A DNA stretch of 31,205 bases from Cochliopodium minus (taxonomy: Eukaryota > Discosea > Himatismenida > Cochliopodiidae), in assembly GCA_024220525.1 (NCBI GenBank), contig JAMYWO010000350.1:1-31205 (forward strand), given 5' to 3'. The notes beneath the pieces are model-generated. The model worked only from the letters and a program-made list of their open reading frames with translations. It was not told the DNA's origin and searched no databases. The translations under genes were made by a program, and so were the position numbers. Position 1 is the first letter of the stretch. Each line of letters begins with the position of its first letter. Positions 4,766 to 24,269 of this stretch are shown piece after piece.

Positions 4766-7257
4766 TTATTTGAAGAATTCTTTCACTTTATTAATTCCCA
4801 AATTGTAAAAACTTTCCCTCATGTTTTTGACAAGTCCTCTGTAGACGAAAAACAATAACTTTCCAAATGGATGTTCTTTAACTTTTTCCGAGAAAAGATG
4901 AAAGTTGTTCAGGCCAATTTCTGAAACTACTTGATCATAATAATCATCTATTTCTTTAATTTTCTTTTCATATTTTTGAATTAATTCCATATTACTTTGA
5001 TTTTTTAAATGAGGAAAATGTTTGAACAATAGTTTGTGTTTGAAGAGGAGAGCAATGTGGAGGTTGGTTTGCATGGGAGGATCCGAGAAGTGAACAAACA
5101 TTGTCAAATTGGATACTTCAACCCCAACTTTTAAACTTACATAATATTTATTTAACAAAATCTTCTCTTCTCTTTAAAATAATAATTTGAAAAAATAAAA
5201 ATAAAAAAAAAAAAATTACTTTTGGGAAAACAAAATGTATCCTATTTCATTAAAAGGGTTTCTATTTTCTAATAAGTTGATAATATCTTTAACATTCTTA
5301 CTCCTAAAGTTAGTTAAATTGTTTTCCCAACCCAATTCTTCCTAAAAAATAAATAAAAATAAAAATAATAATAGAAAAAAATAAAAAAACAAAAATAATA
5401 TTAAAAATATAAAATTAAAATGTCGAATAAAAACTTACAAATTGAGAAAGATCGATTTTGTGGAGAAAGGGGAGAGAATATGCATCAACAAGGATTATCT
5501 TATTTTTTCCACTCACATTGACCAATTTCCTTTCCATTTTAGTTTGCAAATAAAAAGTGAAACAAAGATCAGTTTGAGAAGGAAACATATAACCCAATTC
5601 TTCCCAAATCTTCCAGAAATGAGTTTCAAACAAAATTTCATCAAAATTTTCGCTATTTTTAGAAGATTTTTTGGATTTAGAATAAAAAAACTGGGAAGGT
5701 GAATTGGGCTCAATAGAAGAGGATAATTGCCATTTTCCACCAAAAAAATAAAGGTGAAATCGAAAACCTTCCACCACTCTACTTAATTTTGTGATCTCAA
5801 AATCATTTTTGTTTTTGAAATGATTCATTACTTTGAGTCTGGGGAAAAAAGAAAGAACAGAGTAATCATCCAAATTAACGATGAGATGTTTCAAATTCTT
5901 TTCAATAAAAGTTTTGGGAGCGCTGGATTTCATGAGAGTAAACAAAACCACATTCTCTTCACTTTTATGAGGAATGCATGTCAAATTTTTGTTTTTGTTT
6001 AAAAATAGGGATAATGAATCACTATTTTTAAGATCTTCAATGAAAAAATTGACGAAATCAACTTTTGTTTTTCTCCCACTTTGTAATTCGTTCTCTTTTT
6101 TTTTTTCAATTAAATTTATTTTTGGAATTTCCAACTTTCTCACAATTTTCAAACCCATGACCTCTTTATCATAACATCCATTCAAACTAGTGATTTTCTT
6201 CAATTTTTTCTTTCTTTTTTTGATGTTAGTTTTTAAATTAATTTCTCCCTTCAAAAGGAGAATTTGTTTTTTGATAATTTTTTCAAAATTGAAAGAAAAG
6301 TGTTTCCCCTTTTCCGCCCTCTTCAAAATTTTTTTGAATTTTCTTTGGGTGTAAGTGTAGCATGAAGAAAATACCTTCCACTCTGAAAAATCCTTTCTTC
6401 CCATCACATAAAAGAAAAGTTTGTTCAAAACTGAAAAATCTCCAATTTTTTTATCCTTCAAAATTTCCAAAGAAAAAAACATATATCTAAAATAAAATTG
6501 GAAAATAAAATAAAAAATATTCAAAAAAAAATTTAACATAAAAAAATTACCTTAGAGAATGAACAAACTCTTTTTTGGAAGCCCTGAAATTTTTTGCTAT
6601 GAACTTGGTTTTGGAGGTGGAAATTCTCGTCTTGCTCTCCCAACTGATTGTCCTTTTCATGAGTACTATGTCTATTTCTTTGGGAGGTTCCAATTTTAAC
6701 TCTCCACTGTTAAATAAAAGAGTTTCTTTCCCTCCATAAATACACTAAGTTTAAAAAAAAAATTAAAAAATAAATTAATTTTAAAAAATGAATTGTTAAT
6801 TGAAAAAATAAATGGTTAATATTTCAAAGATATTAACCATTTATTTTCTAAACATTTTTTTTTTTTACTTGTAAGCCCTGTTGTCTGTACTCATAAATCA
6901 AACAATTGAATTTTTCTACAGAAAACAAAGCCAAGTTGTATTCTCCAAATTCCAACACAACATGTATATCACTTTATTTGAATAAATAAAAGGTTTTATA
7001 AAATAAAAAAAAAAATTTTTTTTTATCCTTTACTTTTTTTCTAGTGGATACTTCTCTAAGAATATCTTTTCTGTCTCATTTGATACAATGACACATAGAT
7101 CGTAATCAGAGGATTTATCGTGGCATTTATAGATCCTACTTCCCCATAAATAGGCTGCCAAGATTTTGTCTTTGATATCTGAGATATGGGATGAGATGAA
7201 ACCATCAAAATTTACAATGAAATGATTATAAAAGCTAAATTTGTCCTCTATATCCAT
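4766..7257 (-). CDS. Pol-beta-type nucleotidyltransferase fused to a T4 RNA ligase 1-like domain
   Basis: Exons on the minus strand: 7257..7034, 6971..6869, 6744..6551, 6486..5439, 5341..5220, 5171..4766. All six are in phase and give 698 residues. The N-terminus is a minimal nucleotidyltransferase: GS at 39-40, SDYD with Asp51 and Asp53, and a third acidic strand at Asp76 (DIHVV), followed by a helical segment to about 200. A Lys-rich linker (about 245-310) leads to a ligase-like fold. It shows EGFRFHLYFFGGKWQLSSS at about 413-431 (RNA ligase motif I/III region), CFTFYL near 482-487, NKIILVDAY near 502, and an IGYIL...NKYYVSLK motif V-like block. A helical C-terminus with FPHL and HPFGKLLF recalls T4 Rnl1-type C-domains. 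The lysine expected three residues before the motif I glycine is Val411, so adenylylation by the normal mechanism is doubtful. RNA end repair is an inference. Confidence 0.78.
6805..6847. repeat. Perfect 18-bp inverted repeat with 7-base loop in an intron
   Basis: Bases 6805-6822 and 6830-6847 are exact reverse complements around the loop TTCAAAG. The element sits inside the 124-base intron between exons 2 and 3 of the nucleotidyltransferase-RNA ligase gene. Transcribed on the minus strand it would fold into a near-perfect 18-bp hairpin. It could be a short inverted-repeat element, a splicing-related structure or a small-RNA precursor; the sequence alone does not decide. Confidence 0.8.
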
Positions 7258-7420: not shown

Positions 7421-10085
7421 TCATTCAAGATCATTATCATCATTGTCATTGTCACTTTCATCTTCATCATCTTCACCATCAAAAACATTGATCTGTCTAC
7501 GATCGTTGTAAGTCGGAATGACAGTGTTGGAGTTTTCAGGCTCCCACACTCTGACGGTGCCATCGAAAGAGGTGGAGACGAGTTGGGGTTTGAATGGATG
7601 CCAAGAGAGGTCTCTTATAGTTGCCTGGTGTCCTCCTAATTTTTTTACTATTTCCCCACTTAAGACATCAAAAATATAAACCTTTTCAAAAAATTAATTT
7701 TTAAAAAATAAATGAATGAAAAAAATAAACAAAATAATATATAAAAAAAAAAAATTTAAAAAACTTTTTTATTTTACAAATCCGTCGTGAGAACCAGCAT
7801 AAATATACTTCTGCCCAGTGGTTTCTTGTGGGGAGAAATAGGACCTTTGTAAGTAAACAAAAATAAAAAATAACAAAAAAATTTTGATAAAAATTTTGAT
7901 AAAAAATATAATGAATCTTTAATATTAAAAAATTTAAAAAAAAATAATCAAAAAAAATAATTTTTTTATTTGTTTACCTGACAAGTGTTTGGAGTACTGA
8001 ATGTCCCCTGTAAGTCATGAGAGAAGAATCTGAGCTGTCTCTCAACCTGCCACCAAGATTGTTGTTTCGGTTCCCTCTAAAGCCTCCTCTGTAATCCCTA
8101 ATTAAATAAAAATAAAATGATAAATTAAAAGATAAAAAAAATAAAAAAAATAAAAAAAAAACTAAAAAATAAAAAAAAATATTAAATGAAAAAATTAAAA
8201 ATAATTCAAAATTATAATATTAAAAAATAATTTAAAAAAATATTAAAAATATTAAATACCAATTAGAAATTCTTTTGGGTTGAACATTGTTACCAGACAT
8301 CATACGGATGTCCCATAACTTGATACATTGGTCCTTACCGTTGGAAATGAGGTATCTTCCATCCCCTTTAGAGTTGATGTGAGTGATACCCTCCAAATGT
8401 CCCACAAGTGTTCCCACATTGGTTCCTCTGACGCCTTGCTTAAGTTGTCTTCTATCCCAAATCTTTTTTTTAAAAAAAAATTTAAAAAAAAATCAAAAAA
8501 AATTTAAAAAAAATACAAATAATTTAATTTTTAAAAAAAATAAAAATGTTTGGTTTCTTTTTTTTTTTACTTTAATCAGCTGATCGTCAGAACCAGAATA
8601 AAAAATGTTCCCGGTCTCGTCAGCATATGAGACAGTGTTAATGTCGTCACTGTGTCCCTCTACCCTCATGATTCTCTCCTTCTTCACCAAATCATAAATA
8701 TAGACTCTTCTATCGCAAGATCCTCCAATGATCTCCTGACTGTTCGGTGAAAACTTAACGGAGAACAAACAAAATCTATACAAAAAAAAAAGTAAAAATT
8801 CAAAAAACAATAAAAACAAAGAAATTTTAAATTATTTCTTAAAACAAATCAAAATTTTATTTATTTTTTAAAAATTCGAATTTAGATAAGTCTAAATTAT
8901 ACAACTTTGTTAGAGGATAATAATTTTTTACAAACAAATTTTTAAAAAAAATTATAAAATTTTGAACATCTTTAATTCAAAAATATTACCTTCCATTAGA
9001 TTCGGGCTTCATGTCCAAAGCTTCGTGTGTTTCGTTTTCCCCTGTGGTATTGGACATATGGACAAAGTTGGACCAACTGGTGTAGATCACCCATCTTTGA
9101 TCAGGAGAATAATCAGTGTCCAAAACTAAACAAAATAAAAATGAAAATAAATAAATGGATAAAAATAGCGGAGATTTTCTCATAATGAAATATCCTCTTA
9201 AAAATTTTTACCAGACCACCCAACATCTCTAGCCCTTATCTTCTTCAAACATCCCCAAGTTTCAGTGTCGTACAATCTCAACATCTTGTCTTGGCAAGCG
9301 CTCATAAAGATGCTTCCGTCTTTGCTGAATTGTCCACAAAACACTTGGTTTGCATGCACTGCTAATGTCTTTTTGGTTTTGTCCGAAGGTAAAAATCTCG
9401 ATGTGATGTGTTTTTTGTCGTTCATTGAAAATTGCAAATTAATATTTCCTTCTCTCTTTAAAATTTTTTAATCAAAATAAAGTTAATCAATTAAAACATG
9501 ATTTATTTGAGTGTATTTTTGAGTTAAGTTTAATTTATTGAACCTGCACGGAACATTATTTAAAATTATAAAAATTAAACATATTTCAAAATCTTAAAGC
9601 AAAATCTTGAAGATGTTGAAATATAATATAGCATGTTTTCGGAAGATAATTGCAAAATGATTTAATGACATTTTATTATTTGATTTTTTATTTTTTAGCT
9701 GAATAAAAATTGTTTTTGGATACCTTTTGCAACATTGAAAATATTGTTTGGTTGGGTTTATTTGGATAACATTTGGTATCTTTCATCATCTCTTGAGCAA
9801 ATGATGTATTCTAATTTAAAAATATTAAAGAGATGTGAGAAAAAAAAAAATTCCAAAGAGCAAGTTTACATGGAAATCATTAATCAATTTCTCTTTATCT
9901 ACTTCTATTAAATCCCTATTATTTTCTTCTTGTTCTTGTTCTCTTTTTTAAAAATTATTTAAATTTTGAAATTATGATATATAATGTGGTTACTGATATT
10001 GTGATAGCAAACGAAAATAATATCTCAATGCATTCAAATTGATTTCTTGCTCTTCTTGATCATCATCTTCATTTTCGTCTCTCAT
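7421..10085 (-). CDS. DCAF11: DCAF11/WDR23-like WD40 substrate receptor of CUL4-DDB1
   Basis: Exons on the minus strand: 10085..9994, 9942..9870, 9810..9724, 9455..9212, 9125..8990, 8775..8571, 8462..8260, 8097..7978, 7844..7778, 7681..7421, all in phase, 495 residues. An acidic N-terminus (DENEDDDQEEQE) leads to the family-typical RFLP segment. WD repeats follow, including CGQFSKDG...ACQDKMLRLYD, DVGWS...DTDYSPDQRWVIYTSWS, FSVKFSP...GGSCDRRVYIYDL, NTVSYADETGNIFYSGSDDQ and GHLEGITHI...ISNGKDQCIKLWD. Both IWDRR and LWDIR match the WDxR motif that docks DCAFs on DDB1. An Asp/Glu-rich tail ends the protein. In animals the family targets NRF2-type and other nuclear proteins for ubiquitination; the substrate here is unknown. 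The short first exons were placed by phase and are less certain than the WD exons. Confidence 0.9.
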
Positions 10086-15486: not shown

Positions 15487-15605
15487 GGTTACGATCATAT
15501 CATGATGAATATACCGCATCCCGTCTCGATCTGCGAAGTCAAACATCATTGAGCTGTGTTAGTAGTGTGGTGGGAGACTACACGCGAAGCCACAGTGTTG
15601 TAACC
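15487..15605 (+). rRNA. 5S ribosomal RNA
   Basis: 119 bases whose ends GGTTAC and GTAACC form helix I. Internal landmarks are ATACCGCATCCCGTCTCGAT, then GCGAAGTCAAACATCATTG (box A/helix III region), then TTAGTAGTGTGGTGGGAGAC (intermediate element and box C). It is followed at once by seven T, a Pol III terminator. It is one isolated copy, not a tandem array, and at roughly 47% G+C it stands far out of its A/T surroundings. A decayed second copy lies at 21573-21690 on the other strand. Confidence 0.94.
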
Positions 15606-15612
15606 TTTTTTT
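15606..15612 (+). terminator. Pol III T-run terminator of 5S
   Basis: Seven consecutive T directly after the last base of helix I of the 5S gene, the standard RNA polymerase III stop. Confidence 0.8.
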
Positions 15613-16142
15613 AAATAATTTTCTAAAGTTTTTTTAATTTTTTTATACTTTTTGTTTTTGAAAGAAACAAATCAAATATTTCAAATGGAAAAAACCAAAA
15701 TGCCAAAATAAAAAACAACAATTCTCAATATTTTCAATTTTTTTTAATTTTTATAAAAAGGCGGGTAAAAACAAAACAAAATTTTTTATTTGTTATATTT
15801 CAGATTATATGATATCAAAACAAATAAATACCTCCAAAAATTCATCACATTTTTTTGATTAAATTTTTCTATATTTTTATATTTTTATATTTTGAAAAGA
15901 AAATTAAATATTTTTTTCAATAAAAATAAAAAGATAATGTGATAAGATAAAAGGAAATTTAAATGTGAGTATATAGGATGTTTGTATTTGAAGCTTTTAA
16001 ATATTTTTTTTTTTATTTTTGATTTGTTTTATTATAAAATACTATTTTTGGAAAAAAAAGATTTTATCTTTTTTTATTTTTTTTTAAAGTTATTGTGATT
16101 AAAATAAAAAAAACTTACTTTTAAAAAACCTAAAATCTTAAA
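15613..16142. other. Spacer between 5S rRNA and Rac
   Basis: About 530 bases of A/T-rich sequence holding the Rac promoter. A GGCGGGTAAA around 15761 is the only G+C-rich patch and loosely resembles an E2F half site. Otherwise nothing is seen. Confidence 0.5.
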
Positions 16143-16733
16143 ATGCAAAACGTTAAATGTGTTGTTGTTGGAGATGGAGCAGTTGGTAAAACTTGCTTGT
16201 TGATCAGTTATACAACAAATGCTTTTCCAGGGGAATATATTCCAACTGTATTTGATAATTATTCTGCAAATGTAATGGTTGATGGAAAGCCAATCAATTT
16301 GGGACTCTGGGATACTGCAGGACAAGAGGATTATGATAAATTGAGACCATTATCTTATCCACAAACAGATGTTTTCTTGATTTGCTTCTCATTGATTTCT
16401 CCAACCTCTTTTGATAATGTAAAATCAAAATGGATGCCAGAAATTAGACTTCATATGCCAAATACAAAGTGTATTCTCGTTGGAACCAAATTGGATTTGA
16501 GAGATGATCCAAATACCATTCAAAAATTGGCTGAAAAGAAATCAGCACCAATCACATATGAAAGAGGATTGGCAATGTCCAAAGAAATTGGAGCAATCAA
16601 ATATATTGAATGTTCTGCACTCACTCAAAAGAATTTGAAGCTTGTATTTGATGAAGCAATTAGATGTCATTTGTTTCCTACTGAATCCTCTGGAAAGAAG
16701 GAAAAAAGTGGAGGAGGATGCAACATTCTTTAA
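16143..16733 (+). CDS. Rac-type Rho GTPase, canonical
   Basis: Intronless, 196 residues, with numbering that matches Rac1 through switch II. P-loop GDGAVGKT is at 10-17, Tyr32 and Thr35 lie in switch I ([10 protein letters not shown]), DTAGQE is at 57-62, TKLD provides guanine specificity and ECSAL follows. The Rho insert helix is present ([13 protein letters not shown]). The tail ends CNIL, a CaaX box predicted to be geranylgeranylated, after a short basic/Gly stretch. All catalytic and effector residues are intact, so a membrane-attached switch controlling actin is expected. A second copy, inverted and diverged, lies at 19967-20557. Being intronless among intron-rich neighbours is notable. 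Confidence 0.96.
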
Positions 16734-19966: not shown

Positions 19967-20557
19967 TTAACAAATGTTACAAAATATGACATCTCCTTTC
20001 TTTCCTACTTTTCTCTTTTTATGATATAGACAACATCTGATTGCAGTATCGAATATCAGCTTGAAATTGGTCTGTCTTAACGCGGAACATTCTATGTATT
20101 GATAAGCTCCGATCTCCTCTGCCATTTTCGATCCAATTTCGGTTGAAATGGGTGATGATTTCCTTTCAGATAATTTTTGGAGGGTATCTTTATCATCTTT
20201 CAGATCTAATTTAGTTCCAACAAGGATGTATTTGGCATTTGGATCATGTTTTTTTATTTCGGGAATCCATTTGGATTTCACGTTATAAAATGAAGTTGGA
20301 GATACCAATGAGAAACATATCATGAACACATCTGCTCCTTTATACACAGAATTTCTTTTATCATCATATTCCTCTTGTCCATTTGTATCAAATAGCCCAA
20401 AATTGATGGGCAATCCATCTACCATCACATTCGCTTCATAATTATCAATTGTGGTGTGGATATATTCTGATGAAAATGCATTTGTTGTGTATAATATAAT
20501 TGATGTAGTTTTACCAACCCCTCCATCTCCAATCAATACACATTTTATATTCTTCAT
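19967..20557 (-). CDS. Divergent Rac-type GTPase
   Basis: Intronless and exactly as long (196 residues) as the Rac at 16143, with strong identity throughout, so they are close paralogs. The P-loop is GDGGVGKT; DxxG (DTNG), Gln61, TKLD and ECSAL are kept, so GTP binding is likely. Changes fall in functional surfaces: Pro34 to His and FDNY to IDNY in switch I, Trp56 to Phe and Ala59 to Asn at switch II, and RPLSY replaced by RNSVY. The tail is strongly basic ([10 protein letters not shown]) and ends CNIC, a CaaX box. Altered effector choice or cycling is inferred. It is convergent with cystinosin. Confidence 0.93.
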
Positions 20558-20675
20558 TTTTTTTTTTCATCTTTCAAAACAATCAAGGCTATCAAAAGTG
20601 TCTTTTTAATTTCGAATCTTGGTACTTTTCTTGAAACTTCCTTATTCATTGATTTAAGATTTGATAGAAAAAAAA

Positions 20676-21572: not shown

Positions 21573-21690
21573 GGTTATAACACTATGGCTTTGCGCGAAT
21601 CTCCAATTAAATTACTAAAAAAGCTCAATGATGTTTGACTTCGCAGATCGAGACAGGATGCGGTATATTCACCATGATTTGAGCTTTCAA
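21573..21690 (-). pseudogene. Decayed 5S rRNA copy
   Basis: Read on the minus strand, about 47 bases from GAATATACCGCATCC onward match the 5S gene at 15487 with one difference, through the whole box A region. The second half is strongly diverged, and the box C GGTGGGAGAC has become AATTGGAGAT. The 5' side of helix I (GGTTAC) is missing, apparently by a 12-base deletion, while the 3' side survives as ATAACC followed by seven T. A TTTTTT run inside the copy would stop Pol III early. It cannot fold as 5S and is taken as a pseudogene. Confidence 0.88.
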
Positions 21691-23645: not shown

Positions 23646-24269
23646 TTAATAATCATCCCTTCCAACTTTTCTATTACTTTTTACATTCGAATCTCTTTTC
23701 TTCTCTTGTATTCTCTTTTCCCTTTCGTGTTGAGGTACCTCCGTTTCTATTCTTTCCTTCGGTTTTATATTGGCGCTCTTCATTAGATCCTTCAACTTGT
23801 TCATGCAATCCTTCAAGTTTTGATGTTGTGTTCTTTCTTTGGTGGAGGTTATTATGAAGTATCCTTCTGTGTTCATTCTGTTTCTGTGCATTTCTGCAAA
23901 GCTTTTTCTTAATTCAGATGGGATCCAATCTGCTGTATCCACATGGAATCTTATCTCCACCTTTGAATTTACCTTATTTACATTTTGACCACCAGCTCCT
24001 ATTTAAATTAAAGGATAGGGTTAAAAAATGAATATCTTTGGTTAAAAATTATAAGATAAGCCTTTTTTTTAACCTGGAGATCTTGAAAAATTGAATTCTA
24101 ATTTATGTTTTGGTATTTCTGGAAGTTCTTTAACATAATATTCTTTTGTTGCGTAAAATTTTTTGAATAAATTAAGATTATTACATATAATAACATTATT
24201 ATTGAATTTGTATTGATTATTCCACTTATTGTTGAACATTTTATGATTTATTTTGGATATTGTCTTCAT
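23646..24269 (-). CDS. Mitochondrial class I release factor / ICT1-like peptidyl-tRNA hydrolase
   Basis: Exons 24269..24074 and 23998..23646 on the minus strand join in phase, 182 residues. The intron falls inside SRSPGAGGQNVNKVNSKVEIRF, the GGQ catalytic motif (Gln70) and its family-typical continuation. The C-terminus is basic (REKRIQEKKRDSNVKSNRK), as in ICT1/MRPL58 and bacterial ArfB, where such a tail enters the empty mRNA channel of stalled ribosomes. The N-terminus is basic, Asn-rich and lacks acids up to LNLFKKFYATKE, a plausible mitochondrial transit peptide. Role: hydrolysis of peptidyl-tRNA on mitochondrial ribosomes. The gene shares a 201-base divergent promoter with Aurora kinase. 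Confidence 0.92.

What the first reader, a model, noticed from the sequence alone, without database searches (positions are those of the whole stretch)
4766..7257. Nucleotidyltransferase-RNA ligase fusion with no canonical motif I lysine
Six phase-consistent exons join an active-looking minimal pol-beta nucleotidyltransferase (GS39-40, Asp51/Asp53/Asp76) to a T4 Rnl1-like ligase fold in one 698-residue protein. Adding nucleotides to an RNA end and then sealing it would make a self-contained end-repair enzyme. The ligase lysine expected three residues before the motif I glycine is Val411 (VVEGF), although neighbouring blocks (GKWQLSSS, CFTFYL, NKYYVSLK) and the Rnl1-like helical C-domain remain. 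The ligase part may be a binding module, use another lysine, or be a distinct nucleotidyltransferase subfamily.
Basis: partly seen in the sequence, partly recalled or inferred. Interest (0 to 1): 0.72.

Follow-up and report, generated by a model that had tools for sequence, protein, structure and literature searches.

The report
RNA-end nucleotidyltransferase fused to dead ligase
A protist gene joins a phage-type nucleotide-adding enzyme to an RNA-ligase-shaped domain that has lost its catalytic residues, so it probably adds nucleotides to RNA ends while the dead ligase part holds the RNA instead of sealing it.

Summary
The gene is real: six GT-AG exons on the minus strand (7257-4766) encode 698 residues, and six paralogues in the same genome show the same NTase-then-ligase layout in one gene model. 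The C-terminal half is a T4 Rnl1-type RNA ligase fold (hhalign 99.6%, 324 columns; T4 Rnl1 is the top structural match of exon 4). The missing motif I lysine (V411) is confirmed and is only part of the loss: 0 of 6 T4 Rnl1 catalytic positions remain here, against 60 of 60 in ten stand-alone ligases, two of them from this genome. Fused copies keep 0 to 5 of six, and the tree suggests parallel loss. All fused copies keep the NTase GS and DxD. The third NTase position is Asn87, not Asp76; Asn is also the usual residue in viral relatives (16 of 24). That NTase is a stand-alone phage gene, sometimes near an Rnl1 ligase. Best reading: an RNA-end NTase carrying a pseudoligase as docking module, with sealing left to other ligases. 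Function is inferred. Self-contained repair is unlikely for this copy, open for the C50 paralogue.

The parts
4766..7257 (-). whole gene: exons 7257-7034, 6971-6869, 6744-6551, 6486-5439, 5341-5220, 5171-4766; 698 residues
   Evidence: composition; paralogues with the same layout
6869..7257 (-). exons 1-2: Pol-beta-type NTase domain; G39-S40 at 7143-7138, D51 at 7107-7105, D53 at 7101-7099, N87 (third position) at 6937-6935
   Evidence: Pfam Polbeta E 1.2e-6 over its cut-off; invariant GS and DxD
6333..6684 (-). helical domain after the NTase, residues about 130-225 (interrupted by intron 6550-6487), with invariant K167 and R174
   Evidence: alignment with phage NTases; four-helix, HEPN-like bundle in the model of a viral homologue
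5439..6056 (-). first part of the ligase-fold domain, residues about 318-523
5889..5891 (-). K373 at the position of T4 Rnl1 R54
5766..5777 (-). V411-V412-E413-G414, motif I without its lysine
5550..5552 (-). Y486 at the position of T4 Rnl1 E159 (motif III)
5243..5245 (-). I556 at the position of T4 Rnl1 E227 (motif IV)
5153..5161 (-). I568-L569-L570 in place of the motif V lysines (T4 Rnl1 K240, K242); one of the two is a gap in each alignment
4769..5095 (-). C-terminal region, residues about 590-698, matching the C-terminal part of Rnl1
   Evidence: tblastn to C159 over residues 394-688; hhalign of three fused copies reaches T4 residue 344

Best explanation
An RNA-end nucleotidyltransferase whose fused Rnl1-type domain is a pseudoligase. 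Shown by sequence: the fusion, the ligase fold, retention of NTase GS and DxD in all fused copies, and loss of all six tested ligase positions in this copy. Inferred: the NTase adds one or a few nucleotides to a broken RNA end (perhaps tRNA); the pseudoligase with its C-terminal region holds that end; sealing is done in trans by intact Rnl1-type ligases of the same genome. The family probably descends from a phage-type NTase plus Rnl1 gene pair that was fused, multiplied and diverged.
Against: No expression, binding or activity data. The third NTase position is Asn, so reaction and acceptor are uncertain. The best structural match of the NTase model is HalB, solved with oligodeoxyadenylate, and a weak sub-cut-off hit is the MntA antitoxin; both fit other roles. 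The exon 4 model is poor (pLDDT 59.6) and its alignment held canonical ligases, so the fold match is not independent. RNA binding by the pseudoligase is inferred from fold alone. 25 of 30 IMG/VR NTase loci show no Rnl1 ligase within reach, and 0 of 13 IMG/VR ligase loci show the NTase.
Confidence: 0.5

Rival explanations
1. A sensor or signalling enzyme: the pseudoligase recognises broken RNA and gates the NTase, which makes a nucleotide signal, tail or protein tag instead of repairing RNA.
Confidence: 0.17
2. A decaying gene: both halves are drifting and the protein has little function.
For: All six ligase positions lost, Asn at the third NTase position; the C251 copy shows a disturbed reading frame in its ligase half (my reading).
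Against: 698 codons open over six spliceable exons; GS, DxD, K167 and R174 intact; structural columns still shared with the intact ligase L020 (F, W, Y, P, F, L, G, V, P invariant); Asn is the usual residue in viral relatives.
Confidence: 0.13
3. One reading: adds nucleotides and then seals, with another nucleophile in the ligase half.
For: Fold retained; the C50 paralogue keeps 5 of 6 positions.
Against: Not only the lysine but both glutamates and both motif V lysines are gone; T4 Rnl1 mutants at K99, E159 or E227 are reported inactive even after adenylation (PMC6035275, passage).
Confidence: 0.05

Closest known systems
[quoted passage not shown]
   Same: Pol-beta NTase followed by helices; described beside RNA ligases (PMC7824862, passages); profile match 96%, E 2.7e-9 with RlaP loci of this genome
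   Different: No Pfam RlaP hit for the window copy; Asn at the third position; fused to a ligase fold; this genome also has separate RlaP loci, over the cut-off on four contigs
Stand-alone phage NTase of the phrog_388 type (Bacillus phage FADO gp204, phage G gp109)
   Same: GS, DxD, K and R and the helical domain; phrog_388 match for both phage proteins and, weakly, the window; one gene away from RnlA in FADO and PJN02
   Different: Separate gene of about 200 residues; no fusion seen in the phage loci examined
T4 RNA ligase 1 (PF09511)
   Same: Fold and extent of the ligase half
   Different: 0 of 6 catalytic positions kept; no Pfam ligase hit for the window copy
HalB NTase of the Hailong system
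   Different: 10-11% identity, solved with oligodeoxyadenylate, no ligase half
RLIG1 / C12orf29
   Different: Active ligase; no Pol-beta fusion mentioned in the passages seen

Membership tests
T4 Rnl1-type RNA ligase, as an active ligase | T4 Rnl1-like fold | tested here: met
   hhalign 99.6% for three fused copies, 83.6% for the window alone; T4 Rnl1 best structural match of exon 4, low-confidence model
T4 Rnl1-type RNA ligase, as an active ligase | motif I lysine in KxxG | tested here: not met
   V411; the lysine is kept in 10 of 10 stand-alone ligases
T4 Rnl1-type RNA ligase, as an active ligase | motif III and IV glutamates, motif V lysines | tested here: not met
   Y486, I556, I/L with one gap
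T4 Rnl1-type RNA ligase, as an active ligase | ATP-dependent sealing of RNA | not testable with these tools
   needs purified protein
RlaP NTase (PF10127) | Pfam RlaP score over the curated cut-off | tested here: not met
   no RlaP row for the window; C426 copy 14.2 and C50 copy 13.0 bits against cut-off 23; 1 of 6 members at E 0.0087
RlaP NTase (PF10127) | GS and DxD followed by helices with conserved K and R | tested here: met
RlaP NTase (PF10127) | third carboxylate | tested here: not met
   Asn87; Asp in the RlaP profile at that place
phage NTase of the phrog_388 type | homology over NTase and helical domain | tested here: met
   HMM of 24 viral NTases scores the window 81 bits over residues 28-224; phrog_388 E 1.3e-3
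HalB-type NTase | same fold | tested here: inconclusive
HalB-type NTase | oligodeoxyadenylate synthesis | not testable with these tools
   needs purified protein

The most novel reading that the evidence does not exclude
A lineage-expanded family of eukaryotic sensors in which a dead RNA ligase recognises broken RNA ends and gates a phage-derived, HalB-like nucleotidyltransferase, so that RNA cleavage itself triggers a nucleotide signal, tail or tag.
Probability: 0.12. Interest if true: 0.82.

Novelty: new variant of a known kind. Interest (0 to 1): 0.52.

Why it matters
NTases that work beside RNA ligases are known from phage and microbial RNA repair. Here the two are one protein in a protist, in many strongly diverged copies, and the ligase site has decayed to different degrees while the NTase GS and DxD stay. 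If the pseudoligase is a docking or sensing module, it would be a rare case of an RNA ligase fold reused without chemistry, and the series from C50 (5 of 6 positions) to the window (0 of 6) makes the order of loss testable.

Tried and rejected
Considered and rejected: (1) D76 as third carboxylate, which the viral HMM does not support. (2) Chance ORF joining, against composition and paralogues. (3) Activity through another lysine. (4) Direct recognition by sequence: no Pfam ligase hit and no PDB phmmer hit for the whole protein; the family profile A1 matched only NTases among plausible PDB hits.

Led nowhere: the C50 protein found no relative in viral contigs (0 of 3 pattern matches); profile A3 found one viral ligase. 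No relative of the phage NTase among prokaryote genomes by two pattern scans (0 of 56 and 0 of 38 stretches); such scans reach close relatives only, so absence is not shown. The VIA lists for the two models do not exclude families not listed. No eukaryotic genome collection was available, so whether other protists carry the fusion is unknown. Paper searches listed no paper that I could see describing this fusion; most were seen only as listings. Burroughs and Aravind 2016 is not held; its content is recalled and it may describe such fusions.

Rows dropped: the six-position table uses 18 ligases. L060 (motif I region broken in my gene model), L062 (frame disturbed) and the other Rnl1 loci of this genome (L052-L057, L059) were left out. 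The C426 row was joined by hand from two predicted pieces.

Full report
Gene. On the minus strand, six exons with GT-AG introns of 48 to 124 bases give a 698-residue protein. Exon GC is 29.9% against 9.6% in introns, and exon 4 alone holds 349 complete open codons. My own gene finder returns the same exons, with the caveat that it was trained partly on them. No transcript data were available. The genome is an unnamed 44.65 Mb assembly in 598 contigs. I suspect an Anaeramoeba-like protist, but no call tests this.

Family in the genome. The protein finds relatives on several contigs (14 matches), and further queries find more. One gene model with NTase, helical domain and ligase half in that order was obtained on C45, C159, C321, C33, C549 and C50. 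On C426 and C251 the halves fell into adjacent predicted pieces on the same strand, and C251 appears frame-disturbed (my reading). C3 and C120 carry the NTase with no ligase half recognised. Hits on other contigs, for example C169, C2 and C37, were not fetched. Identity of five paralogues to the window is 19 to 27%.

Active site. In an alignment of 18 ligases, the positions of T4 Rnl1 R54, K99, E159, E227, K240 and K242 are intact in 10 of 10 stand-alone ligases: eight from phages or viral contigs and L020 and L058 from this genome. Fused copies keep: C50 5, C321 3, C159 2, C426 2, C33 1, window 0, C45 0, C549 0. With two other MAFFT settings some fused counts rise by one, the window stays at 0 and the stand-alones at 60 of 60; totals for fused copies are 13, 16 and 15 of 48. 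Of 21 columns conserved in at least nine stand-alone ligases the window keeps 6. K99, E159 and E227 of T4 Rnl1 are reported needed even for pre-adenylated substrate (PMC6035275, passage); the importance of R54, K240 and K242 is recalled. Yet structural columns shared with L020 remain.

Phage links. The NTase occurs as a stand-alone gene in 29 of 50,697 phage records. In Bacillus phages FADO and PJN02 it lies one gene (a protease) upstream of an RnlA-type ligase on the same strand. Of 30 IMG/VR loci with the NTase, 5 have such a ligase within the fetched flank and none is fused; of 13 IMG/VR ligase loci none has the NTase. The C3 NTase is 50% identical to a viral one. RlaP NTases are described as working beside RNA ligases in jumbo phages (PMC7824862, passages), and Anaeramoeba genomes are reported rich in laterally acquired genes, including some of viral origin (PMC11550330, section 11).

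Evolution. In a FastTree of 39 NTases over 204 columns the window groups with C159 (0.886), C45 with C50 (0.751), and these four together (0.968). As C50 keeps 5 of 6 ligase positions and its sister C45 none, and C159 keeps 2 and the window none, ligase decay looks parallel. Deeper nodes are weak, and the solo C120 NTase falls among fused ones, so a single fusion event is likely but not shown.

Conclusion. The best-supported mechanism is an RNA-end NTase with a pseudoligase docking module, sealing supplied by other ligases; probability about one half. A sensing or signalling role is the main rival and the boldest reading.

Noticed in passing
own genome, e.g. L052-L060: PF09511 (Rnl1-type ligase) gives 11 matches over its cut-off on 10 contigs and PF10127 (RlaP) gives 10 matches, over the cut-off on four contigs: an unusually large RNA-repair gene set.
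   Followed up: partly
L017 (reverse strand) about 780-1530: The gene just upstream of the C45 NTase-ligase copy has a USB1-type HVSL domain (PF09749, E 2e-24), an RNA 3'-end phosphodiesterase family (function recalled).
   Followed up: no
L062 about 1890-1960: The C251 copy seems frame-disturbed in its motif I region (my reading): pseudogene or assembly error.
   Followed up: no
viral alignment A7: In this phage NTase family the third carboxylate is usually Asn (16 of 24), unlike typical Pol-beta NTases (recalled).
   Followed up: partly
15487-15606 (+) and 21574-21690 (-): Two 5S rRNA matches, 99 and 50 bits; the second is much weaker.
   Followed up: no
23649-24002 (-): ORF with an RF-1 (GGQ release factor) domain, E 2.9e-16; the basic tail suggests an ICT1-like ribosome rescue factor (recalled).
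   Followed up: no
7421-9467 (-): The next gene upstream carries WD40 repeats; its stop lies about 160 bases from the NTase-ligase start codon.
   Followed up: no
16134-16733 (+) and 19967-20566 (-): Two similar 199-residue Ras/Rho-type GTPase reading frames in the window (Ras family E 2e-43 for the second).
   Followed up: no
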